This document shows, piece by piece, positions 14,106-32,872 of a stretch of 64,000 nucleotides of DNA. This DNA comes from Solen grandis (Eukaryota > Mollusca > Bivalvia > Adapedonta > Solenidae). Location: the NCBI GenBank assembly GCA_021229015.1, contig CM037792.1:1525531-1589530 (forward strand), in the 5' to 3' direction. A program made the translations under genes and the position numbers. The first letter of the stretch is position 1. Each line of letters begins with the position of its first letter. The notes beneath the pieces were generated by a model that ran no database searches, was not told where the DNA came from, and saw nothing but the letters and a program-made list of their open reading frames with translations.

Positions 14106-15166
14106 CTGTAGCCGAAAAAAAAGTACCGTGAAGAAATGCACAAGTATGCACACAAACACAGATTTTCATGACAATTGCTGTAATTCAAAGAGATATAGGG
14201 CACTAGATATATCACTACCCCTACATCCCATCTTGTCTTCATGTTATGTGAGTGTAATGAAGAGCATGATAAACTTCATTTTTTTAATTTAAAATTTTTT
14301 TTACAATAGTGATAAACTATCATTATTTTACAATAGCATATTACTTATGATTAACTTTGTATTATTACAAAATGGCTAAAATTAATCACCAACACTAGCA
14401 CTAGATTAATTCAAAAGTTTAATAACAAATATTTATCAAATCAATTCACATTCCAAATGTGGCAGTAAAGGTCCATGAAGTTGCGGAAAACCCTGAAGAA
14501 ATTGTTATTATTATAATTATTAAAGGAACTAGCTGCGACTCCCCAAGAAATAAATAAGTATGATCCAATCCCTACACTCACTCTGCATGGGGTTCAATCC
14601 CCATGTTAGGGTCCATTCCCTACCACAAGTCACCCCTAGGGTCCAATCCCCATGTTAGGGTCCATTCCCTACTACAAGTCACGCCTGGGATCCAATCCCC
14701 ATGGCGACTTACAAACCTACCTGGTGGGGTCCAATCCCCATGGCAACCTCCTTCACTTTCCTCCATACGGTACATGTTTAAACTCATATAGAGGTGAACG
14801 ACCTAGCGTTAGAGTCAATCACTAGGCCATTTGATCAGATAAACTTTAATATACTTCCTAACAGAACGGATCAGTCAGCAGCCAGTTCCTTTCTACAGAA
14901 ATGATCCCAAAATTCCTTATTTGACTAAAAAACACTGATTTCAATTCCCAACATTTCTCCAGAATTTTCCACCACACAAACTAGGTTCGCCCCAAAATTC
15001 CGGTATATTGCCTCAAAATATCCCATCTGACATATGAACACCGTCTCCAAAATACAACCCGGGGTACTCCATGCTCCATTAAATTTCCCCTCATTCTCCA
15101 TCCAGAATCTAAATATATTTAATTCTTGTGAAAGCTCTAATAAAAAAAAAATAAAGTAGTATCAAA
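14106..15166. other. Intron or upstream sequence without a recognised exon
   Basis: No exon with matching phase or domain was found. A short tandem patch at about 14580-14760 repeats 'tccaatccccatg' and 'gggtcca' phrases every 50-60 bp. The rest is AT-rich host DNA. Confidence 0.5.
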
Positions 15167-18926: not shown

Positions 18927-19026
18927 NNNNNNNNNNNNNNNNNNNNNNNNNNNNNNNNNNNNNNNNNNNNNNNNNNNNNNNNNNNNNNNNNNNNNNNNNN
19001 NNNNNNNNNNNNNNNNNNNNNNNNNN
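18927..19026. other. Assembly gap (100 N)
   Basis: Exactly 100 N, a conventional placeholder of unknown real length. It removes the left end of the virus-like element, including the polymerase N-terminus and any terminal repeat, and the body of the pogo-like transposon. Confidence 0.99.
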
Positions 19027-19027
19027 C

Positions 19028-21105
19028 TGCAACCTTAAGTTAAGGCTGAACCCCAAAACAACGACCATACCGGTTGTATTCCACAACCTGCGGGGCTACG
19101 ACTCTCACCTCCTCATGCAAGCCATCTCCAAGGTAGAGGGCAGGGTGTCCTGCATCCCTAACAACACGGAGAAGTACATCAGCTTCTCTCTCGGGCAGCT
19201 CCGCTTCATCGACAGCGCCCAGTTCCTCCTAGCCTCTCTAGACAAGTTGGTTGCTGCAAACAGGCCCGAGGCCTTCCAGATAACGGCGCGGTATGAACCC
19301 AACAACAACAGGCGCGAGCTCCTGCTGCGCAAGGGAGTCTATCCGTACGAGTACATGGACTCTTGGGAGAGATTCGCAGAGACCCGCCTACCTCCGAAGG
19401 AAGCCTTCTACAGCAAGCTCTCTGACGAAACCTAGGGGACTACCATAAGCTCTACAACCGCACGGACGTGCTCCTCCTGGCAGATGTCTTCGAGACCTTC
19501 CGGAAGACATGCATGCGGCAGTACAGCCTGGACCCCGCACACTACTACACCAGCCCCGGCTTGTCCTGGGACGCTTTGCTGAAGAAAACCGGGGTGGAGC
19601 TAGACCTCCTCACGGATTATGACCAGCACCTCTTCATCGAGAAGGGGCTGCGCGGCGGAATCTCTATGGCATCGAAGCGTTATGCGCGCGCTAATAACCC
19701 ATTGGTCGAGGGCTACGACCCAACCAAGCCGAGCAGCCACATCCTGTACTTAGATGCCAACAACCTCTATGGCTGGGCGATGAGTCAGCCGCTACCAACG
19801 GGTGGCTTCAGGTGGGTAGAGGTGGAGGATCTTCAGCGGCTAGCGGCAATGATAACCGAGCATCCAGAGGACGACCACGAGGGCTACATCCTAGAGGTTG
19901 ACCTGGAGTACCCTGCGGAGCTACATGATGCGCATAATGACTACCCGCTGGCTCCTGAGCGCATGGTTGTCCTCAAGGAGTGGATGTCTGAATATCAGCA
20001 CAATCTCTTAGGCGTTGGGGTGGCGCCGACAGAGGTTGAAAAGCTGGTACCAAACCTCCATGACAAGGACCGCTACGTGCTCCACTACCGCAACCTCCAG
20101 CTGTACCTCTCCCTCGGCATGCGGTTGAAGAAGGTACATCGAACCCTCTGCTTTGAACAGAGCGCCTGGATGGAGCCGTACATCCGGTTGAATACCGAAC
20201 TACGGAAGATGGCGGGCAACGGGTTCGAGCAGGATCTGTACAAGTCGATGAACAACAGCGTGTTCGGAAAAACGATGGAGAATCTCCGGAGGCGGGTTGA
20301 TGTGAAGCTGGTGCGCTCATCAGAGGAGGGTAAGATCCGACGCCTAATCGCCAGCCCAGCCTTCGCACGGGCGAACATCTTCGATGACGACCTGGCTGCC
20401 ATCCAGGTCCACAAGAGCCGGCTGTTCCTCAACCGCCCGATTTATGTGGGGATGAGCATCCTAGACCTATCCAAGCACCTCATGTACGACTTCTTCTTCA
20501 ATCAAATGAAGAAGCGGTACGGCGAGCGCTGCGCCCTCCTCTACACCAACACGGACTCTCTGCTACTGGAGATCCACACCTCCGACGTCTACTCCGACAT
20601 GGCCTCTGGCCAGAGCCTCTATGACACGTCCGACTACCCGTCGGATCATCCGCTGCACAGTGTGGTCAACAAGAAGGTACCAGGCCTCATGAAGGACGAA
20701 TGCCTTGGGCGTCCTATCGCCGAGTTCGTGGGCCTGCGCCCGAAGATGTACTCTATCCTGGAGGCTGATGGGAAAAACATAAAAAAGGCCAAGGGTATAA
20801 GAAAGAACGTCGTGAAGAAGCACATCCGCCACGAGCAGTACAAGGAGGCCCTCTTCGGTAAGAAGACCTTCCGCCACGGCATGGACGTGCTGCGGTCTGA
20901 CCGTCATCGCATCTATGGGCAGCACCTTAACAAGACGTCACTCTCACCCTTTGACAGCAAGAGGTGGATCATGAAAAATGGTGTAGACACCCTGGCCTAT
21001 GGCCATCAACGCGTAAGAACCCCATCCGGCGGCAGTCGTGTGTCGGGTGGCACTATGAGTAGTTCCTCACGGACGAACCCGCGCTCTGGTCCATCCTGGA
21101 GATAG
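19028..21105 (+). pseudogene. polB: DNA polymerase B, protein-primed type; N-truncated, internally deleted, motif C altered
   Basis: This family B polymerase (organellar/viral DNA_pol_B_2 type) would replicate the element. Coding starts at the gap edge. The exonuclease region shows FHNLRGYDSH (about 19070-19110) and IPNNTEKYISF. The frame stops at 19435 and polymerase coding resumes in another frame by about 19433, at GDYHKLYNRTDVLLLADVF. The region between these landmarks is about 20 residues shorter than in relatives, so a deletion plus frameshift is likely. In the second open segment (from 19468) motif A is YLDANNLYG (residues 94-102) and motif B is KSMNNSVFG (259-267). Motif C reads YTNTDS, with Asn at 361 (codon 20548-20550) in place of the first catalytic Asp. 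The true C-terminus is probably near TLAYGH (about 21005); the last 30 or so codons overlap the integrase gene antisense. Most likely inactive. Confidence 0.9.
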
Positions 21106-21992
21106 TACACCACTGGCTCGTCGGGCTTGGTGACAGACCGCCCGAGACGATACACGCCGAGGGACCACACAGGGTCAGTGGCCCGCCGGCGGCCACCCTC
21201 CAGTTCGCCGGCCTGGTAGAGGTAGCGAACACCGACACCGGAGGGGAGCTTTTGCTCCTTGAGACCAACCGAACGGCCGGGTACAACCGAGGAGGGCTTT
21301 TGTGTCACGGATTTGACCTTGATGGCGTCAACCGGCCTTCTACCGGTAAGCCGAGTCACTTCTCCATTCATCGCAGCCACAACCGCGGGCAGCCTGCCAA
21401 CCCATTCAGACGACCGCTGGCCTTGTGGCAGCCGCATTTCGACCGCATACTGGTGCCCGAACAGTCGTTCAGCAAGTGACCGGTTGAACCGCTCTACGAT
21501 CCCCTGATCACGGTGGATATCCACACGGCCGCGCCTGACCTCGACCCCGTGCTTCGCCAGGAGCTGACTGACTGCGCCCATGAACTCGCGTCCAGGATCA
21601 ACTTGCAGCAGTTTCGGCCATCGCAGCGGACCCCGCTTGTAAATCCGCTCGAGAGCAGCGGCGACCTCTTTAGCCTCTTTTGTCGTAAGCGGTTCGGCGG
21701 CTTTGAACCTGCTAGCCACATCGACAACGGTCAGGGCATACTTGTATGTGCGCCGACGAACCGTGTCATGTGGTAGAAATAAGAGATCGGCCTGGTGCAC
21801 TTCGTTCGGCGTCGAAACGGTAAAGCGGGGCCTGGGTATATGGCGCGGAGCTGGGAGGTAGATTTGCCAGATGGCCTGCTTTTTGAGGAAGTCCTTAGCC
21901 TTAGTCTCAGAAACCTTAGCCGCGGCCGCCAGTTTTTTAATTGCCGCTAGCCCCTTCCAGTAGCCCCTTGGGCTGTAGTAGAGCTGATCCAT
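21006..21992 (-). CDS. int: DD35E integrase (retroviral/Polinton type)
   Basis: The 328-residue protein would cut and join element ends into host DNA. The N-terminal 60 residues are helix-rich with a helix-turn-helix look (KLAAAAKVSETKAKDFLKKQ). The rve core carries Asp69 (HQADLLFLP), Asp132 (LQVDPGREF) and Glu167 (DQGIVERFN), giving DD35E spacing with all three catalytic residues present. The C-terminal part (about 245-310) has strands (WSLGVYRLG, YYLQDG, FVREELLIV) resembling the small SH3-like or chromo-type tail of Polinton integrases. The start at MDQLYYSPRG fits the family's N-terminus. It lies tail to tail with the polymerase, overlapping by about 100 nt, and appears intact. Confidence 0.92.
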   Translation of the reverse strand: MDQLYYSPRGYWKGLAAIKKLAAAAKVSETKAKDFLKKQAIWQIYLPAPRHIPRPRFTVSTPNEVHQADLLFLPHDTVRRRTYKYALTVVDVASRFKAAEPLTTKEAKEVAAALERIYKRGPLRWPKLLQVDPGREFMGAVSQLLAKHGVEVRRGRVDIHRDQGIVERFNRSLAERLFGHQYAVEMRLPQGQRSSEWVGRLPAVVAAMNGEVTRLTGRRPVDAIKVKSVTQKPSSVVPGRSVGLKEQKLPSGVGVRYLYQAGELEGGRRRATDPVWSLGVYRLGRSVTKPDEPVVYYLQDGPERGFVREELLIVPPDTRLPPDGVLTR

Positions 21993-22257
21993 GGAGATAT
22001 TCCAAGAGCGTGATCAGCCTCCAACACGCTGAAGCCACAGGCTCTGGTAGCTGCCCTGCTGTTGCCCTGAGGTTAGTCGGGCCCGATAGCATTCTATATG
22101 CGAAGGGCCTCATTAACATTTCATCCTCCCACCAGCTCTCGAGTGAGCTCTGGGCGACTTCGATCATAGTAGAGGATAAGGGCCCAGGAACTTTGTGCCG
22201 CCGAGCTGCATAACCAACTTCCACCATCTTAGTGAAAAGTTCTTCGGGTAGCCCCAT
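21937..22257 (-). CDS. Unrecognised 106-residue protein upstream of integrase
   Basis: I do not recognise this protein. It has a mixed acidic/basic N-terminal half (MGLPEELFTKMVEVGYAARR), a Trp-rich acidic patch (SLESWWEDE) and a Leu-rich C-terminus. It overlaps the integrase start by 56 nt in another frame, so it could be a true overlapping viral gene or chance coding in GC-rich DNA. It lacks a membrane segment. A stop-free frame in the right direction, placed between two genes, is the only support. Confidence 0.4.
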   Translation of the reverse strand: MGLPEELFTKMVEVGYAARRHKVPGPLSSTMIEVAQSSLESWWEDEMLMRPFAYRMLSGPTNLRATAGQLPEPVASACWRLITLLEYLHGSALLQPKGLLEGASGN

Positions 22258-22292
22258 GATGCATATGTATGTAAAAAAAAGTTATTAGAAAG

Positions 22293-22733
22293 TTAATTAA
22301 TCCTTTTTTCAATCCAGTAGCCCGTGAGCCCAGCCGCTCCTAGAGCTAAGACAATAAATCCAAGCTCTCTAGCCTGCTGATCGCCGGACGGTTGGTAGAA
22401 GTCAGCCAGCTGCGGCTCAGGGCCCAGTGGACCGAACCGCTTACTCGCCTCTGGCATTACCGCAGCATACTCCTGCATAGCCTCATCAACATCCTGGAAG
22501 GATTGGACGGCGTGGCCTTGCCGGCGGAGCTCGCTCTGGATAAAGTCTAGACGCTGAGTCCTTTTTTTGACCCACGCCGCCTGGGCCGCCTGTAGCTGTT
22601 CGACCGCGGCGTCATGGCGTCGGCGCTCTTCTTCGACGCCAGAGTTTTTGAAAAGGCTAAACAGATAATTGCTTCCAGTGAACGCCACCGCATTTGCGAC
22701 CGCGCCGCCCAACATCATTGCAATGCCAGCCAT
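22293..22733 (-). CDS. Conserved membrane-associated protein of the element, 146 residues
   Basis: It belongs to a family I associate with unannotated proteins of similar elements in cnidarian and mollusc genomes (recollection, not a search). The N-terminus is hydrophobic and glycine-rich (MAGIAMMLGGAVANAVAFTG). Residues 35-85 form a charged helix, probably a coiled coil (EEERRRHDAAVEQLQAAQAA). A second hydrophobic segment near the C-terminus (GFIVLALGAAGLTGYWI) ends in a short basic tail. The layout suggests a membrane-anchored virion or assembly protein. It is followed on the minus strand by the 106-residue frame and preceded by the 80-residue membrane protein, 19 nt away. Confidence 0.7.
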   Translation of the reverse strand: MAGIAMMLGGAVANAVAFTGSNYLFSLFKNSGVEEERRRHDAAVEQLQAAQAAWVKKRTQRLDFIQSELRRQGHAVQSFQDVDEAMQEYAAVMPEASKRFGPLGPEPQLADFYQPSGDQQARELGFIVLALGAAGLTGYWIEKRIN

Positions 22734-22752
22734 CGTATTATTATAAAGGCGC

Positions 22753-22995
22753 TTAATTCAATACGTTGGCGGGGATCCTCCCTTGCTTGATGAGGAGATA
22801 TTTGGTGGCGAGCGCGGCCGTGACGTCGACTACGGCCATGCCTACGTCCCGCGGGGTGAAATCCAGTTTAGGGTATGTCCCACCGAGTGCGGCCTTACCT
22901 AGGCGCGCATAGCCGACTGCGAATCCCGCTACCAAGGCGCCGTGGTAGATCGCATTAACTACTTCCTTTCCGTTTGGAGTTGCTTGGGCAGACAT
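22753..22995 (-). CDS. Small two-helix membrane protein, 80 residues
   Basis: Two hydrophobic stretches can be seen, at about 18-38 (GALVAGFAVGYARLG) and 51-70 (VGMAVVDVTAALATKYLLI), separated by a short polar loop, so a double-span membrane protein is likely. The N-terminal 20 residues (MSAQATPNGKEVVN) are nearly the same as those of the 77-residue frame at 23127-23360. The two start codons are 365 bp apart within a tandem duplication. This copy looks like the functional one because its length and both helices are intact. Confidence 0.65.
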   Translation of the reverse strand: MSAQATPNGKEVVNAIYHGALVAGFAVGYARLGKAALGGTYPKLDFTPRDVGMAVVDVTAALATKYLLIKQGRIPANVLN

Positions 22996-23180
22996 GATTA
23001 TTCCATGTGATGGGGGTCGCGTCTATAAGATCCGCGATTACTTTCCTCTAATTCTAGAGCGGGCGGGTGGTTGGAGCTGGCGACAACCTTCCAAAAAAAA
23101 ATCCAGCTAGGGCTGCTGCTATGGCTCTAGCGAACATCAGCTATTGAGGCGTTGCTGGCGGCAGCCATTGAGGCATTGCT
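22996..23180 (-). pseudogene. Decayed duplicate of the 3' part of the 153-residue gene
   Basis: This stretch matches 23361-23550 closely: the shared phrases include 'gattattccatg', 'gtcgcgtctataaga', 'tttcctctaattcta' and 'attgaggc(a/g)ttgctggcgg'. In the second copy this sequence encodes the C-terminus of the 153-residue protein. Here small indels and an A-run disrupt the frame. It is the left member of a 365-bp-period tandem duplication. Confidence 0.75.
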
Positions 23181-23360
23181 GACGGAGTGCTCGGCCTCTC
23201 CGTCGAGTGGGATATTCTCGGTCCGCGCCAGAGCTCTGAAGGCGTCCACAATAAGGCTGAAGAAGTTCGTCACATTGCCTAATATGTTCGTCGCTACCAC
23301 GGCGCCTTGGTGCACCTCATTAACTACTTTCTTTCGGTTTGGAGTTGCTTGGGTAGACAT
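23127..23360 (-). CDS. Divergent paralogue of the 80-residue membrane protein (77 residues)
   Basis: The start (MSTQATPNRKKVVNEVHQGAVVA) matches the start of the 22753-22995 product. After about residue 25 it diverges, and the tail is Ala/Ser/Asn-rich (SVSNASMAAASNASIA), probably a chance extension through duplicated antisense sequence. One hydrophobic segment remains. It is likely a by-product of the tandem duplication rather than a needed gene, though the frame is open. Confidence 0.45.
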   Translation of the reverse strand: MSTQATPNRKKVVNEVHQGAVVATNILGNVTNFFSLIVDAFRALARTENIPLDGEAEHSVSNASMAAASNASIADVR

Positions 23361-23362
23361 GA

Positions 23363-23824
23363 TTATTCCATGCGATGTGGGTCGCGTCTATAAGAACCGC
23401 GGTTACTTTCCTCTAATTCTAGGACTGGCGGATGGGTTGGAGCTGGCGATGCGCCCTCCTTAACCTTCCAAAATAATCCAGCTAGGACTGCTACAGCTCC
23501 AGCGTACATCAGCCATTGAGGCATTGCTGGCGGGGCTTTGTGCCCGTCTGATGGAGTGCGCGGCCGCTCCGTCGAGTGGGACCCCCTCGGCTCTGCCGGC
23601 TGCTCCGCCACCGTGGCCTTAAACCCCTGTAACTCATTCAGGAGTGCCTGCTGCTTCCTTTTTCTCGCCTCTGCCCCTGCCCGCCCAGCAGCCACCCGCT
23701 TAGGGTCCTTTGTCCTAGTCACCCTCTCTGGCCGGACTTCCTCCGGCGCACGGACTGGTGTCGCCTCCTCCTTTGGCGGCGCCTCCTCCGGTGTTCCCTC
23801 CATTGCTACGGTTTGTTCCGCCAT
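23363..23824 (-). CDS. Basic, single-span membrane protein, 153 residues
   Basis: Residues 1-35 are Glu/Pro-rich. Residues 35-65 are strongly basic (TRTKDPKRVAAGRAGAEARK), so binding of DNA or an acidic partner is possible. A middle linker follows, then one clear transmembrane helix at about 108-124 (LMYAGAVAVLAGLFW). The basic KDPKxVAAG pattern is one I associate with the same kind of element in other invertebrates. The gene overlaps the 3' end of the next gene (23715 on) by about 110 nt. The last residues extend into the repeat shared with 22996-23180. Confidence 0.65.
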   Translation of the reverse strand: MAEQTVAMEGTPEEAPPKEEATPVRAPEEVRPERVTRTKDPKRVAAGRAGAEARKRKQQALLNELQGFKATVAEQPAEPRGSHSTERPRTPSDGHKAPPAMPQWLMYAGAVAVLAGLFWKVKEGASPAPTHPPVLELEESNRGSYRRDPHRME

Positions 23825-24446
23825 CGTCCTCAGTAGATGCTTGGCAGTGTTTAAATGAGCTTAGCATTGCTGTAACAGGAGCTAAGTATATGCCACAGCG
23901 GTGGTATAGCTCGCAGGTGATGGTATTTAAGGCATGCCCAACAAACGGATCTGCCTCGAGGTCGGCAATCAGTAAAGGCTGTTTATCAGCCGGAATCGGG
24001 AGCAAACGGATAGCCGCCATGGTGTAAATCTGCAGCACCGCAGAGCCAAGGGTCTTGGTCATACTAGCCCCCAGTCGAGCCTCATATCGGGCGTAGAGCC
24101 TGCCAAACTCCTCATCGGATAGACGATCGATTTGATCGGCGGAAATCTCTCTGCCAATGTACTGCTTTGACTTCCCCCCAATAGCGAGCGCAACCAACCG
24201 CTGTCTCTGCTCATGTCGTTCTGCTTTTTCGGGCTCATCGCCCTCTACCCGGCCACGAGGTCGATCAACGACCTGCACAGTCGGCAGGTCGGCAAGGAGC
24301 TCGTCAATAATGTCGTCGCATTCCATTGCAATAGTCACATACCTCCCCACTCTAATTGTGATGAAAATAAAAAGTAACGCGGCGCTCCAGACGCATGCGC
24401 CAACAACATATAGGCCTTTCATGCTAGCACGTGGGGCCAAGAACAT
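23715..24446 (-). CDS. Conserved element protein with optional N-terminal membrane helix (about 203-243 residues)
   Basis: Three in-frame starts are possible: 24446; 24422 (MKGLYVVGACVWSAALLFIF, giving a membrane helix); and 24326 (MECDDIIDELL, soluble). The conserved core (KSKQYIGREISADQIDRLSD, then RLYARYEARLGASMTKTLG) is helical and of a family I link to such elements. The function is unknown. The Gly/Asn-rich last 38 residues overlap the start of the 153-residue gene and may be non-native. The 24422 start lies in the second copy of a 38-bp direct duplication just after the ATPase stop, so the membrane segment could once have been a separate small gene. Confidence 0.65.
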   Translation of the reverse strand: MFLAPRASMKGLYVVGACVWSAALLFIFITIRVGRYVTIAMECDDIIDELLADLPTVQVVDRPRGRVEGDEPEKAERHEQRQRLVALAIGGKSKQYIGREISADQIDRLSDEEFGRLYARYEARLGASMTKTLGSAVLQIYTMAAIRLLPIPADKQPLLIADLEADPFVGHALNTITCELYHRCGIYLAPVTAMLSSFKHCQASTEDDGGTNRSNGGNTGGGAAKGGGDTSPCAGGSPAREGD

Positions 24447-24471
24447 ATAGGCCTTTCATGCTAGCACGTGA
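24405..24471. repeat. Direct duplication, period 38 bp
   Basis: A 29-bp block (acatataggcctttcatgct continuing to agcacgtg) occurs twice, separated by 9 bp. It spans the end of the ATPase gene and the start of the following minus-strand frame. On the minus strand each copy carries a tag stop and an ATG, so the duplication gives two possible starts for the downstream protein. Confidence 0.85.
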
Positions 24472-25103
24472 TAACTACTTGGCTGCGAGGTGTTTAAAAT
24501 AAGCTTTGCGTGCCTCATTTTGGCGAGTCGTTGACGCACGGCGTGTCTTTCGTCTGCGGGGATAATGTCATTTTCGCGCAAGCACTCTTCGAAACTGTCC
24601 CGATCCTTGCAGTGGAAGAGGGCGACCCAACGCGTTTGCTCTCGGAGATCTTTGAGGATGGCGTTGTACCTCTGAGCCAGGACCCAGACCGATTGCTTGG
24701 CATGCCGGCCGCTGAATGCCAACTCTGAGAGCATATCCTTTTTCTTGGTGAGCTGTTTACTCGCGGCCATGTCATCGATGACGAACAACGTCGGCTCACC
24801 CTGAAATACTCGGTAGAAAGCGCGCAAATAGTCGTGAAGCCGTTCACCCGGATCCAGAACATAAACCTCCTCGTCTGTACACACCCATGCGCGCTCCAGA
24901 TAGGTGGTGTTGTGCCTGATCGTGGGACACAGGATTACGACGTGCTCGAAACGGTCGCGGTATGGGCCCTCGAGGAGGTCAAGCACAAATTTCGTTTTCC
25001 CGCAGCCAGTCATGCCGCAGATTATCGCCGAGTGGGGCTCAGTGACTAAGTCGCTAGTAAATAGCCGACACGAATCGCCCATCCTCGATGTTGAGCTGCG
25101 CAT
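24456..25103 (-). CDS. Genome-packaging ATPase (FtsK/HerA, poxvirus A32-like)
   Basis: The 215-residue P-loop ATPase would pump element DNA into capsids. Walker A is GMTGCGKT (residues 30-37), Walker B is LFVIDD (106-111), and a SGRHAKQSVWVLAQRY segment (131-146) supplies the sensor-type Gln/Arg region of A32-like enzymes. The length fits Polinton and polinton-like packaging ATPases. The first in-frame Met is at 25103, and a second (MGDSCRLF) at 25082 is equally credible. Both overlap the end of the capsid gene (stop at 25054). The gene looks intact. Confidence 0.9.
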   Translation of the reverse strand: MRSSTSRMGDSCRLFTSDLVTEPHSAIICGMTGCGKTKFVLDLLEGPYRDRFEHVVILCPTIRHNTTYLERAWVCTDEEVYVLDPGERLHDYLRAFYRVFQGEPTLFVIDDMAASKQLTKKKDMLSELAFSGRHAKQSVWVLAQRYNAILKDLREQTRWVALFHCKDRDSFEECLRENDIIPADERHAVRQRLAKMRHAKLILNTSQPSSYHVLA

Positions 25104-26349
25104 CCATGATTACGAAGAGGTAAATGTTCAATGGAGCTTCAGCTTCTGCTTCTTTGGCGATCTGGATCGTAATACCCGAGCTCCCGTTTTCGACCCGGCG
25201 GCCATTGCCGTGCAGGCCGTCGTCGTCGGTTGACCTCAAGTCCAGCCAGAGAGCGAACTCCTCCGTGAGGTACTTGCCCAGGTCGCAGGCGTGGACACTG
25301 AGGTCCTTGGCCACCATAGCCACTTCGGGATGCCGTTTTAATCCGCCCGCCATTAGTTTTCTGACCTCGTCCCACGCCTGGTAAGGGCGCATGCCATTCG
25401 CATAGAGCTGGTTTGAAACGCCCTCGACAGTGACCTCCACCTTCGTGATCTTGGGGTTGTAGAACGCCTCGCTCTGGCGAGTAAATGCATCAGCCGGTTC
25501 CTCGAAGAGCATCAAGATCCCCTTCATCGATCGAGCGGGGACGTTCAGGTTGATGTTCCACAGCGTGTCCTCCTTGTTCGCCACTATTCTGCGGTGTCGG
25601 AGGACCTTGTCGTAGAGGATCGCCATCTTCCCCGCATACTGGTTGCGGATGTTGTCGGCCAGCTCCCTGTTAGTCACCTTCTCGAACTCCAAGGAAATGC
25701 CCTCGACTGAGTATTTGGCAGCCGCGTCACCGGCTGCCCGGACTACACGGTCGTAATCGTTGAACGTAAATTCGTATTCCAGCCTGTCACCGAAAGCGGC
25801 CTGAAAGAAGGGCACGTGACTCTCCAAGAGTTCGAAGTCGAGTGGGATGTAGAAGCGGTTCCCGTAAGCCTTGGCAACAGCGACGTCCTTCGCCTTGTTA
25901 GTCACCTTGTCTCCAGCATCGAGTCTATTCTTCGTTACGTTTCTGTCCTTCGTGGTGTCAATACCCTGGTACTGTGAGTTCGCCCGCTCGTTGTCGGTTT
26001 TCCAGAGGTCCACGTAGCACCAGAACACATCGCTGTCATCGATGCTCATGACCTCGTTCCCAGAAATTTTGATCGTGATCTTCTTCACGATGGCCCTACC
26101 AAGATTATTGACCACTAGGCGGTTAGCATCGGTTGAGTCCAGCTTGATTTGGAATGCTAAACGAGTTGTTCCGGGGACTATGACATCATTAGCCCCAAGG
26201 CTCGGGAACCTCACTAAGAGATTCTGATTTTTGTCGATTGTGGAGGGGTTGTTTGTGATTACAACCGTTTGGCGAGTGCCTTTGATCCCTAGGGGTTCTC
26301 TCAGGCGTCGGTGCGGGTTGAGCTTTCTACCGTATGCGCTTTGTGCCAT
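25054..26349 (-). CDS. Probable major capsid protein, 431 residues
   Basis: This is the largest intact structural candidate, just upstream of the packaging ATPase, the position expected for a capsid gene. Beta-rich text throughout (DVIVPGTTRLAFQIKL, KKITIKISGNEVMSI, DRLEYEFTFNDYDRV, KVEVTVEGVSNQLYANG) fits a jelly-roll protein. It belongs to a family I recall as unannotated proteins of virus-like elements in aquatic invertebrates. Double jelly-roll capsid proteins of Polintons are usually longer, so the fold is inferred, not shown. The start at MAQSAYGRKLNPHRR is good: it faces a 38-bp divergent spacer with the next gene. Intact. Confidence 0.7.
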   Translation of the reverse strand: MAQSAYGRKLNPHRRLREPLGIKGTRQTVVITNNPSTIDKNQNLLVRFPSLGANDVIVPGTTRLAFQIKLDSTDANRLVVNNLGRAIVKKITIKISGNEVMSIDDSDVFWCYVDLWKTDNERANSQYQGIDTTKDRNVTKNRLDAGDKVTNKAKDVAVAKAYGNRFYIPLDFELLESHVPFFQAAFGDRLEYEFTFNDYDRVVRAAGDAAAKYSVEGISLEFEKVTNRELADNIRNQYAGKMAILYDKVLRHRRIVANKEDTLWNINLNVPARSMKGILMLFEEPADAFTRQSEAFYNPKITKVEVTVEGVSNQLYANGMRPYQAWDEVRKLMAGGLKRHPEVAMVAKDLSVHACDLGKYLTEEFALWLDLRSTDDDGLHGNGRRVENGSSGITIQIAKEAEAEAPLNIYLFVIMDAQLNIEDGRFVSAIY

Positions 26350-26387
26350 GATAATGTATTGAACTCGCAGACGTTTGGGTCTAATAC
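26350..26387. promoter_or_regulatory. Short divergent intergenic region between capsid and plus-strand gene
   Basis: Only 38 bp separate the two divergent start codons. The spacer carries an inverted pair, atgtatt near the capsid start and aatacat near the other start. This symmetry would suit a shared bidirectional promoter. No experimental or family evidence supports a specific motif. Confidence 0.35.
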
Positions 26388-27607
26388 ATGATTATGGCCG
26401 ATGAAGATATACCACTACAAGATTTCAGCGACCGGACGTCGCCGGCCGATGACGTCATCGCAACCACATCGCTTTCCAATGAATTACTCATGGATGCCGT
26501 TAATGAGTTTTATAACAATTTGAATGAGGGATCTCCCGCCGCCGGTAAGGACTACAATAAATTTGTGGTCGACAGAAAGGGTCAACTCCGCCTAAGGGCT
26601 CATCCGGATGTTGATCTGATCAATGCTCGCGACGGAAGACCCCTAAAGCTAACCACTATAGCAGGTAAGATAGGGAAAGGGGTTCGGCAATAGTCCGTGA
26701 GGAACTCGGTTTCTCGGACTGGAGTAGGAAAAAGATGATTCTACCCGCTGAAGCTCTCACCCAGATACAGCGGGCTGATGGAGTACTGGGCGAAGCGGCC
26801 GGCGGAAGTCTTGAGGTGGTAGATGTCGACAGAGCAACCCACGCCCTGACGGAAGCGGAGGAGACCGCGTTGAAAACGATCAACGACTCACCACTGAGTA
26901 CATCGGACTTGGACAGGTCCGAGTTAGTAATGCGGTACCGGGAACTCCGAGGACTCGATAAGGCTATGCAAACCCAGCGCGGTGAGCTTGTTAATAACCT
27001 GGCAAGGCTCTCTGAGCTCGACAGACACATTGAACGGGAAAAAAGAAAACTGGGAGAAACAGAAGACGAGCAGCTGCGGCGGGAGATCAGACAGCGCATC
27101 GCTGATCTTAATGACCAGCGGGCGGCTAGGCTCGAGGCGGCTTCGTTCAACCGAGAAGCTCTCAGATCGCAGATCGGCCGGATTCGGGACACCCTGCGGC
27201 GAATGATGCATGAAGACGCCACGCTGGCTGAACGGATCAAGACTCTCTTCCGAGAGCAGGGGATCACCGTCGTGTCCATCCTCACGGCGATGGGGATGAC
27301 CATCAGCACGCTCGTTCTAGCACTAACAAGAGGCGGTGCAGGCGGGGCCACTCCCCCTGCGCCAACTGATAAGGGTGGGGTAAAAGAATGGGTGAAAAAG
27401 CAGCTGAAAGCTCTCGCCACCCTTCTTGGTAAGCTTGCGGGTAAGCTCGCGGCCGCCATCCCCGGCATCATAGGCAGCGTGGTTTCGTGGTTGCTGTCGA
27501 CCGCCGGCAAGGCAGTTGGATGGCTTGCTGAGCACACTTGGGCGTTGGTCATTGCTGTTGGAGGCCTGTTGCTAGTCGCAACTCGCGAGTGGCTAGCGAA
27601 GCGCTAG
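26388..27607 (+). pseudogene. Coiled-coil, membrane-active structural candidate; split by a frameshift
   Basis: Two adjacent open segments, 26388-26693 and one containing 26735-27607, together match a single protein family I recall from related elements. Coding in the second frame extends back to about 26678, and the switch falls in a G/A homopolymer tract at about 26671-26684. The N-terminal part is acidic (MADEDIPLQDFSD). A long charged coiled coil follows (about 26930-27240), then a hydrophobic helix (ITVVSILTAMGMTISTLVLAL), a Lys-rich linker and a Gly/Ala-rich amphipathic C-terminus (GKLAAAIPGIIGSVVSWLL) ending in a second membrane helix. The layout could suit a membrane-interacting minor virion protein (inference). 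A one-base assembly error could also cause the break. Confidence 0.65.
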
Positions 27608-28843
27608 CTAAAGGGCCACTAGCCCGACCGCAATTCCGCCCACAACCAGAGCCCTTTTCTCGTCGGAGTGTGCCCGCGCAGCTGCTGCGTTTGCAGCGGG
27701 CAGCGTTGATACTCCCTTATGAGTCGGTGGGTCTGCCCGCGGAGGCCCCGCGATTTTACCATCATCGAAGCTGCCATGCTGCAGCCCCTGAACTGGAGCA
27801 GAGTTGCTTTGAACCGTGCCTATGGGGGGGTCCTTCTGAATTTTGTTGCCCGCGATTTTACCATCATCGAAGCTGTCATGCCCCTGAACTGGAGCAGAGT
27901 TGCTTTGAACCGTGCCGATGAAGAGGCCGGCCGGAGCCCTCAGAATTTTGTTGTTGTAGCCCGCGATGCCTGGATTTATATTAAGAAGCATGTCGCTTGG
28001 AGCCATGTACAGTCCTGTCCCAAAGACCATGTTAAGCTCACTCCCGGCGTACTGCAGAACGCCTTGGTAACGGGTGATAGAGGCCTGGATGTCAACCGGA
28101 GAGTTGATCGCATCTTCCACTAGTGCTAGGAACTGCTTTTGAGCCTCGAAGCCGCCCGATGTCTTGTCGATGATCCTGGACTTGGTTTGTGCCTGGGCAC
28201 CGAGCAGAGCCCACACATATGTCCGGATTGAGTCGTTGATTCGCTCCATGCCGGCTTGGGTGAAGCCTTTCGAGTTGTCAAGCACGAACGTGCTCCAAGA
28301 GCCGTCAACGCCGGGATCTTGCTCGATGAACTCGATGTGGGCCTTTTTAGGCGGTAGCCAGTCGCACGATGAAACTCCACAATGACGGCCTCCAGAGACC
28401 TCCGAGCCGAATGTCATGTGTTCGGGGTCTAGGCTTCCGGCGTTCTGCCTGGCGATGTGTTTTGCCTGATTGTCGTGTCGGAAGTCTGTCTGGGTCCACG
28501 CAACGTGCCCCCTGGTGTGAACGTCCCCCAGGCCGCGGCTGTTCGGATACTCTTTCTGACGCCAGTCTGTCTGGGGATCGACCCCGAATTCCTGGCAAAG
28601 CCGTTCATACGCTCTCCGGTCGTATGTATTGTTTAGGGGGTCCCAGGATGCGTCCTGTGGGAGGGCGCATTTCATTTCCGCCAGAATGCGTCTTATGGTG
28701 TAGTAGGCGTGAAAGAGGTATACAGATTGAATGAGCAGATTCTTGTGCCCCGCCGGCCCATTCAGGTGGTCATTAAATGAAACTCCCGAACCGGAAGTTG
28801 CGCACCAGACTGCAAAGTTGACCTGGTTCTGCCAGAACTGCAT
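27608..28843 (-). CDS. Conserved structural candidate with internal duplication, 411 residues
   Basis: The N-terminal 300 residues (MQFWQNQVNFAVWCATSGSG, NDSIRTYVWALLGAQAQTKS, MVFGTGLYMAPSDMLL) are a conserved family in such elements in my recollection. The gene's size and its convergence with the coiled-coil gene suggest a virion protein. The C-terminal region has two copies of a Gly-Thr-Val-Gln-Ser-Asn-Ser-Ala-Pro-Val-Gln-Gly unit encoded by direct repeats 102 bp apart (27748 and 27850). The protein ends in a short hydrophobic helix (ALVVGGIAVGLVAL). Its start overlaps the 80-residue frame upstream by about 70 nt in another frame; the two may be one gene broken by a frameshift near 28845. 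Confidence 0.65.
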   Translation of the reverse strand: MQFWQNQVNFAVWCATSGSGVSFNDHLNGPAGHKNLLIQSVYLFHAYYTIRRILAEMKCALPQDASWDPLNNTYDRRAYERLCQEFGVDPQTDWRQKEYPNSRGLGDVHTRGHVAWTQTDFRHDNQAKHIARQNAGSLDPEHMTFGSEVSGGRHCGVSSCDWLPPKKAHIEFIEQDPGVDGSWSTFVLDNSKGFTQAGMERINDSIRTYVWALLGAQAQTKSRIIDKTSGGFEAQKQFLALVEDAINSPVDIQASITRYQGVLQYAGSELNMVFGTGLYMAPSDMLLNINPGIAGYNNKILRAPAGLFIGTVQSNSAPVQGHDSFDDGKIAGNKIQKDPPIGTVQSNSAPVQGLQHGSFDDGKIAGPPRADPPTHKGVSTLPAANAAAARAHSDEKRALVVGGIAVGLVAL

Positions 28844-29015
28844 CTGTTTTGACCCTGGGTAGACGGTACTGGCGCCAGATGTCGGGCATTTTCGCAGAGA
28901 AGACCTTGCCGGGGGCGGCTACGATCTGTATCGTGGACAAGTTGTTGGCGGTTAGGCTCCGCTGATACCCCCCTGCCTTATACTTCGCACCGCTATTGAA
29001 CGTAAATACCTCCAT
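28773..29015 (-). CDS. 80-residue frame; possible N-terminal part of the 411-residue protein
   Basis: The text MEVFTFNSGAKYKAGGYQRS through MPDIWRQYRLPRVKTD looks like authentic viral coding. The last 25 residues run over the start of the 411-residue protein in a different frame. A single-base slip near 28845-28850 would join the two, and the start here sits only 14 bp from the divergent plus-strand gene, as a real gene start would. Whether the pair is one broken gene or two overlapping genes cannot be settled by eye. Confidence 0.5.
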   Translation of the reverse strand: MEVFTFNSGAKYKAGGYQRSLTANNLSTIQIVAAPGKVFSAKMPDIWRQYRLPRVKTDAVLAEPGQLCSLVRNFRFGSFI

Positions 29016-29029
29016 CGGAATATTGCAAG

Positions 29030-29689
29030 ATGTTTCAGACGATTACTGATATAACTACGAGCCCAACCTACCTCCAAAAGCCAATCGACAATAGAGGCGG
29101 ATGTCTCAGAGTCGGGCTGCGGTCCATCACATACACGATTGGCTGGTTCAATGTCACAAAAAACGAGGCGGTCACGTCCAAAGGGGTGAGAAAGATGGTT
29201 CCTCCCGGACTTTGGACTCTTCAGCAGCTACGTTCGTATTTCAACTCCTTGTTCGAGGACCTAATCCTAGCGCCGAACGAGACAACCGGACTCCTCGCTA
29301 TCAAACCTAATGAAAGGGGCGTACATTTCACGGAGGGGTTGCTGCAGCTTCTTGGCTTCGACCAGACCCAAATGCCGATCAGCCCACACACGGGTGTGCG
29401 TGGGCTGCGTCCGGTAAATTTCAGTCCGAACAGATTGTTGTTCATTCATCTGGAGCAGCTAAACACTACCGAGAACGCCCTGAACGGCGCCCCCAGTAGT
29501 CTGCTCGCCGCTGTCGCCGTTGGAGACTGGGAATACGGGGAGATTAAAACGTCAGTATTCCCCAATCCCGAGTTCAAGCTTCTGAGACAGGGTACCATCT
29601 CAGAGCTTTCTCTCTCAGTTAGAGACGAGCGTGGTAACATTATAAACAACCACGGCTTGCCAGTGACTGTCGACCTTGAGGTGAAATGA
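29030..29689 (+). CDS. Putative minor capsid (penton-like) protein, 219 residues
   Basis: The sequence is beta-rich with no membrane helix: LRVGLRSITYTIGWFNV, NRLLFIHLEQLNTTEN, then ELSLSVRDERGNIINNHGLP and a final TVDLEV strand. Its size and beta content fit a single jelly-roll minor capsid protein of the kind Polintons encode beside the main capsid, but this is an inference. The stop overlaps the start of the next gene by 4 bp (ATGA at 29686-29689), which suggests coupled expression. Intact. Confidence 0.55.
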   Translation: MFQTITDITTSPTYLQKPIDNRGGCLRVGLRSITYTIGWFNVTKNEAVTSKGVRKMVPPGLWTLQQLRSYFNSLFEDLILAPNETTGLLAIKPNERGVHFTEGLLQLLGFDQTQMPISPHTGVRGLRPVNFSPNRLLFIHLEQLNTTENALNGAPSSLLAAVAVGDWEYGEIKTSVFPNPEFKLLRQGTISELSLSVRDERGNIINNHGLPVTVDLEVK

Positions 29690-30465
29690 GTATCTTTGGC
29701 GGGCGGGGGTATAAATCCTCTAAGGGCGATTACGCCACTCGGGCTTACGTCGATGCAGTCGCTTCGCGACGGTCCGCACCTCCCGATCTATCGCAGTATC
29801 TCAAAAAGACGGATGATGGAAATGTAGACTTAGAAGGAGGTCGGCTTATGAACGTCGGTGACGTCGCAGGGCCTACTGACGGTGTTTCTGCGAAAATGGT
29901 CCAGACAGCGTGGGACCATTTTAAGGGCGAAGTCGTGAGGAAAAATGGCGGAACGCCCATGGAAGACGACCTTGACCTTGGAGGTCACCGGATCATAAAT
30001 GTACAGCTTCCTCGGCACTCTAAAGATGCCGTAAACAAAGCGTACGTCGATGCAAGGCTCGGTCTAATCCAAATTCCCGACCCCGTAATAACTCTAGTGG
30101 CCGAGGAGCGCGGACCTTTGGTTGGTGGGCAGTTCGAATGGTCGTTCGGCTCCAACTCGGATGGTCTGTCTCAGAGCAAAGTGGGCTACGTCATGATGAA
30201 AAAAGGCAAGATCATTTCAATGTCTCTGTCCGCGGCCGAGCGTGATGGACAGTCGGAGGATCAAGTGTCTGTAGGCGTCACCTTAAATGGACAATTTCAA
30301 CAAGGCTATGATATCACTAAGGTCCAGCACTCTTATGTCGCTTCCAAGACCTTCCTACAGCCTCTACAAGTTGAGAAAGGTGATATTATCAACTTTCAGA
30401 CGCGCGACACGAGTAGGTCCCACGCTTCCGGTGTGGTTGCAGTCCTAATTGAACTGGAGGAGTAA
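29686..30465 (+). CDS. Fibre-like protein with phage-style AYVD repeats, 259 residues
   Basis: Two repeats resemble phage tail-fibre repeats: residues 17-23 (ATRAYVD) and 94-122 (DDLDLGGHRIINVQLP then DAVNKAYVD), with a weaker third (NVDLEGGRLMNVGD, 46-59). In phages such 'LGGxxIxN...DAxxKxYVD' units form trimeric fibre shafts. The C-terminal half (130-259) is beta-rich (GQFEWSFGSNSD, VSVGVTLNGQFQQ, VVAVLIELEE) and could be a receptor-binding or knob domain. The start is fixed by the 4-bp overlap with the gene before it. Intact. Confidence 0.7.
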   Translation: MSIFGGRGYKSSKGDYATRAYVDAVASRRSAPPDLSQYLKKTDDGNVDLEGGRLMNVGDVAGPTDGVSAKMVQTAWDHFKGEVVRKNGGTPMEDDLDLGGHRIINVQLPRHSKDAVNKAYVDARLGLIQIPDPVITLVAEERGPLVGGQFEWSFGSNSDGLSQSKVGYVMMKKGKIISMSLSAAERDGQSEDQVSVGVTLNGQFQQGYDITKVQHSYVASKTFLQPLQVEKGDIINFQTRDTSRSHASGVVAVLIELEE

Positions 30466-30484
30466 CAACATATATTATACGAAT

Positions 30485-31107
30485 ATGAAGGATGAACTAC
30501 AACAACCTACGGCACCGCCTCTGTATCCCTCCCTGCCAACTGAGGGCGATGGCCACGCTTACCGTCTTCAACAAATAACGCGCATTCAGGCCGATTTAAC
30601 GCGCGAGGCCGAAAAAAGGTCTGGCCTATGCAAGAAATATAGAAGGGCGTTGAACGCCGTAGATGGCGTTGACGCTGCTTTGGCGGCCGCTGGGGGGGGA
30701 CTTGGAATCGGTGGCGTCTACTTCTTCTCGACAGTCGTGGCCATTCCGGTCGCTGTAGGGCTCGAACTGGGTCTCTCGGTTGTGCGGGTCTCTGTGTTAT
30801 TGGCAAGGTGGCTGGGCGGCGCCTTTCCCGCAAGTACCTCAAGCATCGACGCATTGAGACGATTGCCCGTGTAAAGCTGAATACGATCTCCGACATCGTT
30901 AGCAAATCCCTGACAGACGGTAACATTTCCGACATCGAGTACAGGCTTGTTCTAGATGAGCTCCAGAAGTTTGAAGACCTGAAACGGGAGGTCTATGCCA
31001 AACAGGCGCCATCTCCGGTAAACATGGACGAGCTTCGAAAAAAACTCCTAGACGAAGGCCGCAAAGAAGCGCTCGCAGAAATCGCCAAAAAGTTGAATTC
31101 CTCCTGA
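30485..31107 (+). pseudogene. Membrane protein of the element, split by a frameshift
   Basis: The first segment starts at 30485 (MKDELQQPTAPPLYPSLP, 19 bp after the fibre-like gene) and includes a charged helix (QADLTREAEKRSGLCKKYRR) and a long hydrophobic region (GLGIGGVYFFSTVVAIPVAV). Past about 30800 the family-like text continues in the next frame (RRLSRKYLKHRRIE, then KLNTISDIVSKSLTDGNISD) up to 31107. I recall the two halves as one protein in related elements, so a single-base slip at about 30797-30808 is likely. The PPLYP segment near the start resembles a late-domain or PPxY-like motif, perhaps by chance. Confidence 0.65.
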
Positions 31108-31760
31108 GCTGCGTTTGTGTTAGAGGCTCAGACCCACCACCTATGTACAGAGAATAAACAGTGAGTATGTGTCCCCCGACAATCATCAATCTGATCCAGC
31201 TATCTTTCCCTGTCGCCACACTTATTATGGTGACCTTTATAATGCATCGGCAGAATAAGGTCGATGCCGGTCTTCGGAGGCTTAACGAGGAATGTCTCCG
31301 AGAGAAAACCCAGGTCTCTACCTCAGACTAATAGCAGAGGTCTCTACCTGCCCACTTTTTTACCCCCCTTGAGCCCGGGCTTTCCCGGAGGGAAAGCGAG
31401 GGTTGTGGGCCGTCCCTAAGCCCGGCCGGTGAATTCCTTTTGAGCTGCGTTCGTATTAGAGATTCAGACCACCACCTACAGCAGGACCTTCCTGCTGTAC
31501 AATACACACAATTTCTCTCCGTCCTATGAGGCCCCCCCCTAATAAGAAGCTCCCCCCTAGCCGCCACTTTTCGTTGGCTGCCCGTTGGGCCGCGCCGGCT
31601 GTCTCTATCTGCTCACATTACTTTTCCGCCCCTCTCCCCTTGAGCCCGGGCCTTCAGCTGACGAGGCCTTACAGGCCGAAATGGATTTGGATAACCCCCT
31701 GACTGGGGTGCGTTCCCCCCTGCTGCTGGGGTTGGGGGGCTTGAGGGTTTGAACTGAGGC
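31095..31760. repeat. GC-rich right terminal zone with imperfect duplications and hairpins
   Basis: A block beginning gaattcct..tgagctgcgt and containing 'ttagag.(c/t)tcaga' occurs at 31095 and 31431 (spacing 336). A second block ('gtctcta(c/t)ctg' to 'cttgagcccggg') occurs at 31340 and 31601 (spacing 261). A perfect hairpin, ACAGCAGG-5-CCTGCTGT, lies at 31478-31498. The zone ends in G- and C-runs before AT-rich host DNA. It likely includes the right terminal repeat, but its partner at the left end is missing. Confidence 0.65.
31167..31331 (+). CDS. 54-residue single-span membrane protein
   Basis: A short open frame reads MCPPTIINLIQLSFPVATLI, continuing MVTFIMHRQNKVDAGLRRLN and ending in TSD. 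Residues 6-26 form one hydrophobic helix, followed by a basic stretch (HRQNK) that would face the cytosol. The plus-strand order (capsid-like, fibre-like, membrane protein, then this) supports its being a real small gene. A start with TGAGT just upstream gives no further clue. Confidence 0.5.
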   Translation: MCPPTIINLIQLSFPVATLIMVTFIMHRQNKVDAGLRRLNEECLREKTQVSTSD

Positions 31761-32872
31761 TTATCTAGCTTTTTTGTCCCAGAACTATCATTTTGTATAC
31801 TACTATACTACTTCAGCAATTTTTTATGAGATTCCTTAGGCCAAAATGAACTGAATTGTGACCTGTTCAACAGTGATTTACAGTTTCTTAAAATATCATA
31901 AAGGGAACTAGCCTACCGCATTGAAGCCACATTATTGAAAGTGTAAATTAAAAGTCGTGTAAAAAATCGAATTATTTCCATTGCATTCAAAGAAATAGTT
32001 TGAATCTCTCTCTCCCCCTCTCTCTCCACACACACACACCACACACATACTCCTCATACCTCATACATGTATATAAAACTCACAATATCGTTATTTTTTC
32101 ACAGGATGATCCCTCCTTTAAACTCGCATTTTGCATTTAGTGATAAAATAAAAGTTAGCAATAACACATGCCTCAGTTTATTTCTAAAATGTGCCTCATT
32201 ACATTCCTAGTATATCTAAAATCATTTAAAAAGAAAAAGAAAATATTCATCTTTTTTTCAAGGTGAGGCGCTTTGAAAAACAAATAATATATATAGTTAA
32301 GCTCTTTAATTAAGATTCCTTAGTTCGTTTTGGCAACCAGTGTGTTTTCTGTGTGGCTTATTTTATTTTAATAAGTTTTGTGGTCGCTAGATGCGGGACG
32401 TACTTATTTTACATGTACATGTATGTAGTAAAAACTTTAAAAATGCTTCGGCAAGATTTAAACATATTTGCACAAGTGTCCGTCAGCTACATCAGCCAAG
32501 ATTGTTAAAATTATTTGGATCATTATAGAAACATATTTGTTTAAAGCTAAGTGTCATCAGGAGAGCGAACCAGTGCATTCATGGCCCTCTTGCGAAGGGG
32601 AATTACTAAGCAGGAAAATTCCAACACATGTACAACGGTTTTCTCCCTTTACCTATTATTATATTATGTAATCTAGTTAGATCGTCTGTCTCGTACGCGG
32701 GAAGTCATGGGTTCTATCCCCGGCCGCGATTTACAAAAGTTGAAGATTTGGTACTGGTACAGCTCCCTTTCTTGGCGCTCAGCATATATACTATTTGTAA
32801 ATGCAGAACAATCATGAAGTTGATTAGAGAGGTTAGTAGGTTGTGTAGGAGCTTTTAGCAATCATCCGATAA

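What the first reader, a model, noticed from the sequence alone, without database searches (positions are those of the whole stretch)
19027..31760. Polinton-type virus-like element with an unusual gene set integrated in a mollusc-like genome
Polymerase B, DD35E integrase and A32-like ATPase are seen directly. Around them sit about ten conserved but unnamed proteins: a 431-residue probable capsid protein, a beta-rich 219-residue protein, a fibre-like protein, a coiled-coil/membrane protein and several tiny membrane proteins. The set differs from textbook Mavericks: the capsid candidate is short and no Ulp1/adenovirus-type protease is seen. It may represent a distinct lineage.
Basis: partly seen in the sequence, partly recalled or inferred. 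Interest (0 to 1): 0.9.

Follow-up and report, generated by a model that had tools for sequence, protein, structure and literature searches.

The report
Capsid-bearing Polinton with swappable replication engines
This is one copy of a virus-like DNA element (a Polinton) that occurs many times in an animal genome, where closely related copies pair the same capsid genes with one of two very different DNA-copying enzymes, each with its own DNA ends, so the family seems to exchange its whole replication engine.

Summary
Window 19027-31804 is a GC-rich Polinton-type insertion with a double-jelly-roll capsid protein, a penton-like jelly-roll protein, an A32-type ATPase, an rve integrase and a B-family polymerase. 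No C48-protease match lies near any listed capsid gene. The left end falls in an assembly gap and this copy's polymerase gene is broken. The larger finding came from other copies in the same 1.32-Gb genome, where 97 capsid-gene matches in two subfamilies are listed. In the window's subfamily the same integrase/capsid arm is joined either to a Polinton polymerase or to a 1135-residue polymerase-helicase fusion of the Tlr1/PLV type, with no BLASTP similarity between the two. In 10 of 12 fusion-type pieces the switch is at one base, just inside the integrase gene. All six elements seen at both ends have matching ends (AGTAGT or AGCAGC, according to replicase) and 5-bp target duplications. Replicase type does not follow the capsid tree: one clade is rejected (AU p about 1e-113) and at least three changes are forced. 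Replication and capsid modules were evidently reassorted recently and repeatedly. Virions, activity and the exact place among Polintons remain unshown.

The parts
18928..19026 (.). run of N (assembly gap) that hides the element's left end, left TIR and the first part of PolB
   Evidence: read directly
19027..21105 (+). Polinton-type PolB; start lost in the gap, frame broken between 19435 and 19468
   Evidence: ORFs; PF03175
21006..21992 (-). rve integrase, 328 aa
   Evidence: PF00665 E 2.7e-10
21010..21010 (.). junction: to the left the two element types have different replication modules, to the right they share sequence (94.7-98.9% to the window)
   Evidence: 10 of 12 fusion-type pieces join the window's sequence at exactly this base
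21937..22257 (-). 106-aa unnamed protein, found in pieces of both types
22293..22733 (-). 146-aa unnamed protein with hydrophobic stretches, found in pieces of both types
22753..22995 (-). 80-aa unnamed protein with hydrophobic stretches, found in pieces of both types
23363..23824 (-). 153-aa unnamed protein
23715..24446 (-). 243-aa unnamed protein
24456..25103 (-). A32-like packaging ATPase, 215 aa
   Evidence: PF04665 E 1.3e-10
25054..26349 (-). double-jelly-roll major capsid protein, 431 aa
   Evidence: PF16903 matches 24 of 24 aligned homologues at E 0.1 or better, under its cut-off in the query
26388..26693 (+). 101-aa unnamed protein
26735..27607 (+). 290-aa protein, coiled-coil-like with a hydrophobic C-terminal part (my reading)
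   Evidence: no Pfam match over cut-off
27608..28843 (-). 411-aa unnamed protein with a repeated C-terminal segment
   Evidence: no family
28773..29015 (-). 80-aa unnamed protein
29030..29689 (+). penton-like single jelly-roll protein, 219 aa
   Evidence: beside 44 of 53 capsid genes of this subfamily
29686..30465 (+). fibre-like protein, 259 aa
   Evidence: PHROG 2710 E 4.3e-6
30449..30874 (+). 141-aa ORF with a hydrophobic stretch
30808..31107 (+). 99-aa unnamed ORF
31653..31804 (-). right terminal inverted repeat, recognised by its inverted match to the left ends of other PolB-type copies; element ends at 31804 (AGTAGTATAC read inward)

Best explanation
The window holds one damaged copy of an integrating, capsid-encoding Polinton. 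Inferred life cycle: a linear genome with terminal inverted repeats is copied from its ends by a protein-primed polymerase, packaged by the A32 ATPase into a shell of double-jelly-roll hexons and jelly-roll pentons, and inserted by the rve integrase with a 5-bp target duplication. What is special is that the left arm (end sequence, a small Cys-rich gene and the replicase) is an interchangeable cassette. In one host genome the same integrase/capsid arm occurs with a Polinton pPolB and ends AGTAGT, or with a Tlr1/PLV-type pPolB-SF1-helicase fusion and ends AGCAGC. The junction is shared, and replicase type is scrambled across the capsid tree. The likeliest history is one founding junction at the end of the integrase gene, then repeated homologous recombination between the two forms inside their shared arm, the far end being brought into line with the replicase by copying of the inverted repeat. 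Shown: both forms, the junction, matching ends, 5-bp duplications, discordant trees. Inferred: protein priming, virions, recombination between co-replicating genomes, the end-copying step.
For: Of 21 replicase-side pieces 12 carry the fusion, 6 PolB (two of these, L028 and L029, from diverged copies), 3 neither, 0 both. Of 53 capsid hits of this subfamily 27 have a listed fusion hit, 9 a PolB hit, 17 neither, 0 both on the expected side. Same junction base in 10 of 12. Capsid tree of 18 copies: 7 changes of type, at least 3 forced by supported branches, PolB type as one clade rejected, AU p 9e-114. Integrase-region tree: 6 changes for the fusion type, at least 2 forced. Six elements seen at both ends: matching ends and a perfect 5-bp duplication in 6 of 6. 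In the fusion protein motif A and Walker A residues are invariant and motif C and Walker B residues at least 90% conserved over 12 aligned sequences.
Against: No virion, transcript or activity evidence. dN/dS among 18 capsid copies is about 1.29, so no purifying selection is visible at this depth. In the integrase-region tree supported branches force only one change for the PolB type, and 6 and 8 inner forks of the two trees are open. Ends were assigned in 8 of 12 fusion and 3 of 6 PolB pieces. The AGCAGCAGGGGG string also occurs inside PolB-type ends, and one fusion-type TIR contains inner PolB-type TIR sequence, so the two ends are not wholly separate. The capsid model has moderate confidence.
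Confidence: 0.8

Rival explanations
1. The replicases were exchanged several separate times by new events at the end of the integrase gene, not once followed by recombination in the shared arm.
For: Replicase type changes at least 3 times on the capsid tree, and the junction lies at a gene end, where in-place swaps would be tolerated.
Against: The breakpoint is the same base in 10 of 12 pieces, and the last 200 bp before it are 98-100% identical in those ten, including pairs whose fusion genes differ by 4-6%, which points to one founding junction.
Confidence: 0.2
2. It is a purely intragenomic transposon; capsid genes are passengers and no virions form.
For: Many integrated copies with 5-bp target duplications; dN/dS about 1.29 among recent capsid copies.
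Against: 87 of 97 listed capsid matches have no in-frame stop (the best-scoring candidates, so biased to intact ones), invariant residues run along the whole protein in 24 aligned homologues at 64-90% identity, and ATPase and penton genes accompany it.
Confidence: 0.25
3. One form is a satellite of the other, for instance fusion-type elements helped by PolB-type products.
For: Both share an almost identical integrase/capsid arm and the same host; virophages and at least some PLVs are helper-dependent (PMC11071308, section 11).
Against: Copies of both types have their own integrase and capsid genes, so neither obviously needs the other.
Confidence: 0.1
4. Ordinary Maverick; the fusion replicase belongs to separate elements joined in error by the assembler.
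For: Gaps lie in or beside several fetched pieces (window, L011, L012, L014, L022, L026, L030), and L014 is rearranged beside one.
Against: The ten pieces with the identical junction come from eight contigs, and 8 of the 10 hold no N. Four fusion/capsid protein pairs from other assemblies share contig length and source, which suggests but does not prove one contig.
Confidence: 0.03

Closest known systems
Polintons / Mavericks (PMC4028283, passages read)
   Same: pPolB, rve integrase, A32/FtsK-type ATPase, double-jelly-roll MCP and penton, terminal inverted repeats, integrated in an animal genome
   Different: No C48-protease match near any listed capsid gene; 5-bp target duplications rather than the 6 bp I recall for Polintons; sister copies carry a PLV-type replicase
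Tlr1-like elements and polinton-like viruses with pPolB-S1H (PMC11071308, sections 10 and 11 read; PMC4642659, passages read)
   Same: Polymerase-helicase fusion whose motif C lacks the first Asp, SF1 helicase, vOTU-like stretch and an HNH-like tail in the majority consensus; no protease found; Tlr1 also has an rve integrase
   Different: Here in an animal genome (relatives in Elysia and, at 31-46%, in named glomeromycotan fungi), and joined to a capsid arm that also occurs with a Polinton PolB
Adintoviruses and 'meldviruses' (PMC11071296, passages read)
   Same: Animal-associated PolB plus rve integrase; that preprint reports genomes uniting such genes with virion proteins resembling those of larger DNA viruses
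   Different: The passages read describe chimaeras between virus groups, not two replicases within one nearly identical family; its reference hexons were not available for comparison
DNA polymerase swapping in tailed phages (PMC11348598, abstract and outline read)
   Same: In-place replacement of the DNA polymerase between closely related genomes
   Different: Phages and other polymerase families; here an integrating element of an animal, and the terminal sequences differ with the replicase

Membership tests
[quoted passage not shown]
   PF03175 in the window and in L013; priming itself not tested. The fusion-type sister copies have another replicase
Polinton/Maverick (window copy) | rve-type integrase | tested here: met
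   PF00665
Polinton/Maverick | terminal inverted repeats and target-site duplication | tested here: met
   6 of 6 sister elements seen at both ends; not testable in the window copy, whose left end is in a gap; duplication is 5 bp
Polinton/Maverick | double-jelly-roll MCP and jelly-roll penton | tested here: met
   predicted folds
Polinton/Maverick | packaging ATPase of the A32/FtsK type | tested here: met
   PF04665
Polinton/Maverick | maturation protease (usual, not defining: identified in 74% of Polintons in PMC4028283) | tested here: inconclusive
   4 PF02902 matches in the genome (controls 0 of 14), each at least 885 kb from every listed capsid hit on its contig; PF00770 gave none but rang in no control; a divergent protease could be missed
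Polinton/Maverick | MCP and PolB inside the known Maverick-Polinton cluster | not tested
   no named reference proteins at hand; nearest folds are NCLDV MCPs, which Polinton MCPs also resemble (PMC4028283 passages)
PLV / Tlr1-like (fusion-type sister copies) | pPolB-SF1 helicase fusion | tested here: met
   AAA_30 at 766-919 plus conserved polymerase motifs; the palm is assigned by motif, not by profile or fold
PLV / Tlr1-like | no maturation protease | tested here: inconclusive
   as above
PLV / Tlr1-like | MCP of a PLV group | not tested
   no reference set; one IMG/VR scan confirmed no relatives
Adintoviridae | hexon recognisable by BLASTP, PolB with OTU-like domain, integrase with chromodomain | not tested
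   definition from PMC11071296 passages; reference proteins not available

The most novel reading that the evidence does not exclude
A single population of integrating animal DNA virus-like elements with two interchangeable replication systems: replicase plus its cognate ends behaves like a reassorting segment of a non-segmented genome, repeatedly re-paired with different capsid genotypes in one host lineage. The doubled terminal triplets (AGTAGT and AGCAGC) would be the start sites that each system's terminal protein recognises.
Probability: 0.6. Interest if true: 0.85.

Novelty: new variant of a known kind. Interest (0 to 1): 0.74.

Why it matters
Exchange of replication modules between Polintons, polinton-like viruses and virophages is invoked to explain deep virus evolution. 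Here it is seen at a few per cent divergence, in an animal genome, with the junction resolved to the base and with ends that go with the replicase, so its mechanism, its frequency and the fit between replicase and origin become testable. It also places a Tlr1/PLV-type replicase in animals, with relatives in mycorrhizal fungi, and suggests that 'Polinton' and 'PLV' replication can be two states of one element family.

Tried and rejected
IMG/VR scans with the capsid alignment, the fusion replicase and PolB confirmed no relatives; a scan of prokaryote genomes with the capsid alignment confirmed none. PDB sequence searches gave nothing useful for the capsid protein or the fusion protein. Among ten proteins scanned against PHROGs only the fibre matched. 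Both ends of the window element cannot be compared because of the gap. The C5 protease profile rang nowhere, so its silence proves nothing. dN/dS of capsid copies was computed to look for purifying selection and gave about 1.29; I do not read it as diversifying selection either. Whether PolB and this capsid share contigs in other assemblies was not searched.

Rows dropped or uncertain: pieces L012, L023 and L025 show no replicase. L014 is rearranged beside a gap; it is in the integrase tree but its capsid gene was left out of the capsid tree. That tree used 7 of the 9 PolB-type capsid genes, 10 of its 27 fusion-type ones, and one more typed by its piece (L018). Five of the 17 'neither' hits do have a replicase in their pieces (fusion L018, L019, L022, L027; PolB L028), because the listings are capped. 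The types of L033-L035 and L040-L043 rest on co-location alone. Fusion genes L019 and L022 show low identities, probably because of deletions. Ends: PolB end in L011, L013, L017; only a 5-mismatch match in L028; none on that side in L014 and L029. Fusion end in L009, L010, L018, L019, L020, L021, L024, L026; a weaker match in L016 was not counted; L015, L022 and L027 not assigned. A 5-mismatch PolB-end match in fusion piece L022 was taken as chance. Of nine elements whose far end I fetched, six showed it, one (L030) ran into a gap and two (L046, L048) did not show it.

Literature: ten searches (open-licence PMC only) listed no paper whose listing describes this replicase exchange or this family; I saw listings and, for nine papers, passages, sections or abstracts. 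Absence from print is not shown.
Full report
The observation. The window carries a GC-rich island (about 55% against about 35% around it). It starts directly after a run of N at 18928-19026 and ends at 31804, where the terminal sequence shared with other copies stops. Pfam confirms a B-family polymerase fragment, an rve integrase and an A32-type ATPase. The polymerase is incomplete: its start is in the gap, and between 19435 and 19468 the frame is broken at a short deletion; open copies exist elsewhere. The left inverted repeat and the target duplication of this copy cannot be seen.

Protease. A whole-genome search with PF02902 found 4 matches (controls: 0 of 14), each at least 885 kb from every listed capsid hit on its contig. 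PF00770 found none, but none in the controls either, so it says nothing. None of the 18 window proteins scanned matched a protease family. A divergent protease is not excluded.

Family in the host genome. The capsid protein matches 97 listed places in the 1.32-Gb genome, 97 of 1009 candidates having been scored: by my count 53 at 73-100% identity and 44 at 62-65%. Among public proteins 2328 score E 1e-3 or better, of which 120 are listed; the named ones are from Elysia and from Thiodiazotropha MAGs. The penton lies within 6 kb on the expected side of 44 of the 53.

Two replication modules. I took the replicase side of one copy (L009) and of 20 more. Twelve of 21 pieces carry, in place of PolB, all or part of a protein that is an open frame of 1135 residues in L009; six carry PolB (two of them from diverged copies, L028 and L029); three carry neither; none carries both. 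Short PolB matches at the integrase end of fusion pieces are the opposite strand of the integrase gene. The fusion protein's C-terminal part is an SF1 helicase. In 12 aligned sequences the residues of polymerase motif A (IDMKACYP in L009) and of the Walker A motif are invariant and those of motif C (ATDS) and Walker B at least 90% conserved; the vOTU-like Cys and His stretches and an HNH-like tail appear in the majority consensus only. This is the domain order described for Tlr1-like pPolB-S1H proteins, including the missing first Asp of motif C (PMC11071308, section 10). The palm assignment rests on motifs. In the PolB of L013 I read exonuclease motifs by eye (sequence). BLASTP finds no meaningful similarity between the two replicases (best E 1.6), while the small Cys-rich proteins encoded before them are 45% identical. 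Relatives of the fusion protein (93 at E 1e-3) include Elysia, many unnamed assemblies and, at 31-46%, named glomeromycotan fungi.

Junction. PolB-type pieces L011, L013, L014, L017 and the diverged L028 run colinear with the window across the integrase end. Ten of 12 fusion pieces join the window's sequence at exactly base 21010, four bases inside the integrase gene; L009 and L027 join further inside it, where part of the integrase is missing. To the right of the junction the ten are 94.7-98.9% identical to the window and 97.4-99.5% to each other.

Ends and insertion. PolB-type elements end in AGTAGTATAC, fusion-type ones in AGCAGCAGGGG. On the replicase side the PolB end was assigned in 3 of 6 PolB pieces and the fusion end in 8 of 12 fusion pieces, with no contrary case except one 5-mismatch match taken as chance. 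A string like the fusion end also occurs inside PolB-type ends, and the fusion-type TIR of L018 contains 114 bp of inner PolB-type TIR sequence (95.6%), so the two kinds of end have a mixed history. Of nine elements whose far end I fetched, six showed it (two PolB, four fusion). In all six both ends are of the same kind and the flanks repeat exactly 5 bp, not 6. TIRs are 152 and 166 bp in the two PolB-type elements; in the fusion-type ones they range from 137 bp to 630 bp, two being broken up. From coordinates, the six elements are about 15.1 to 16.6 kb long. The doubled terminal triplet recalls jumping-back initiation in adenovirus (recalled, not tested).

Discordant histories. In a DNA tree of 18 capsid genes (7 PolB-type, 11 fusion-type) replicase type needs 7 changes, at least 3 forced by well-supported branches; holding the PolB type together costs 229 log-likelihood units (AU p 9e-114); 6 of 15 inner branches are open. 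Mean dS is 0.0230 within and 0.0233 between types. A tree of 17 integrase-region sequences gives 6 changes for the fusion type, at least 2 forced, and 5 for the PolB type, at least 1 forced. Across the 53 capsid hits 27 have a fusion hit, 9 a PolB hit, 17 neither listed and 0 both. Several capsid sublineages therefore occur with both replicases.

Mechanism. One founding junction followed by homologous recombination in the shared arm explains the identical breakpoint and the scrambled trees together. That the far end also matches the replicase is most simply explained by copying of the inverted repeat from one end to the other during replication; this step is inferred. Pressure to change replicase could come from host defence or replicon incompatibility, as proposed for phages (PMC11348598, abstract). 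Against over-reading: there are no virion or expression data, and capsid copies show dN/dS about 1.29, so recent copies look unconstrained.

Known or new. Module exchange among Polintons, PLVs and virophages is proposed at deep scale (PMC11071308, section 11; PMC4642659, passages), and chimaeric animal elements are reported (PMC11071296, passages). Ten searches of the open library listed no report of such an exchange within one nearly identical family with junction and cognate ends in an animal genome. I file it as a new variant of a known kind.

Noticed in passing
window 15165-17771: Repeat array with a spacing of about 165 bp and larger duplications in the flanking DNA left of the element.
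   Followed up: no
named rows among P0191-P0233: Relatives of the polymerase-helicase fusion, 31-46% identical, in arbuscular mycorrhizal fungi (Gigaspora, Racocetra, Cetraspora, Diversispora, Ambispora, Rhizophagus), suggesting related elements there.
   Followed up: no
host genome G000: 34 of 43 PolB places have no listed capsid hit of the window's subfamily within 13 kb; many are 57-77% identical with stops, i.e. an older layer of related insertions, and three are 47-48% identical.
   Followed up: no
host genome G000: A second capsid subfamily (62-65% identical, 44 listed hits, 43 without a stop); one replicase-side piece (L029) has a PolB about 45% identical.
   Followed up: partly
window 18928-19026; L011, L012, L014, L022, L026, L030: Gaps lie in or beside several copies, so assemblies may break at these elements and undercount them.
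   Followed up: no
18 capsid genes (window and L002-L044): More non-synonymous than synonymous change per site among recent capsid copies (mean dN 0.030, dS 0.023); cause unknown.
   Followed up: partly
host genome G000: Penton identity to the window does not track capsid identity (for example 99% penton beside a 91% capsid on C3, 81% beside 93% on C8), hinting at recombination within the capsid arm too.
   Followed up: no
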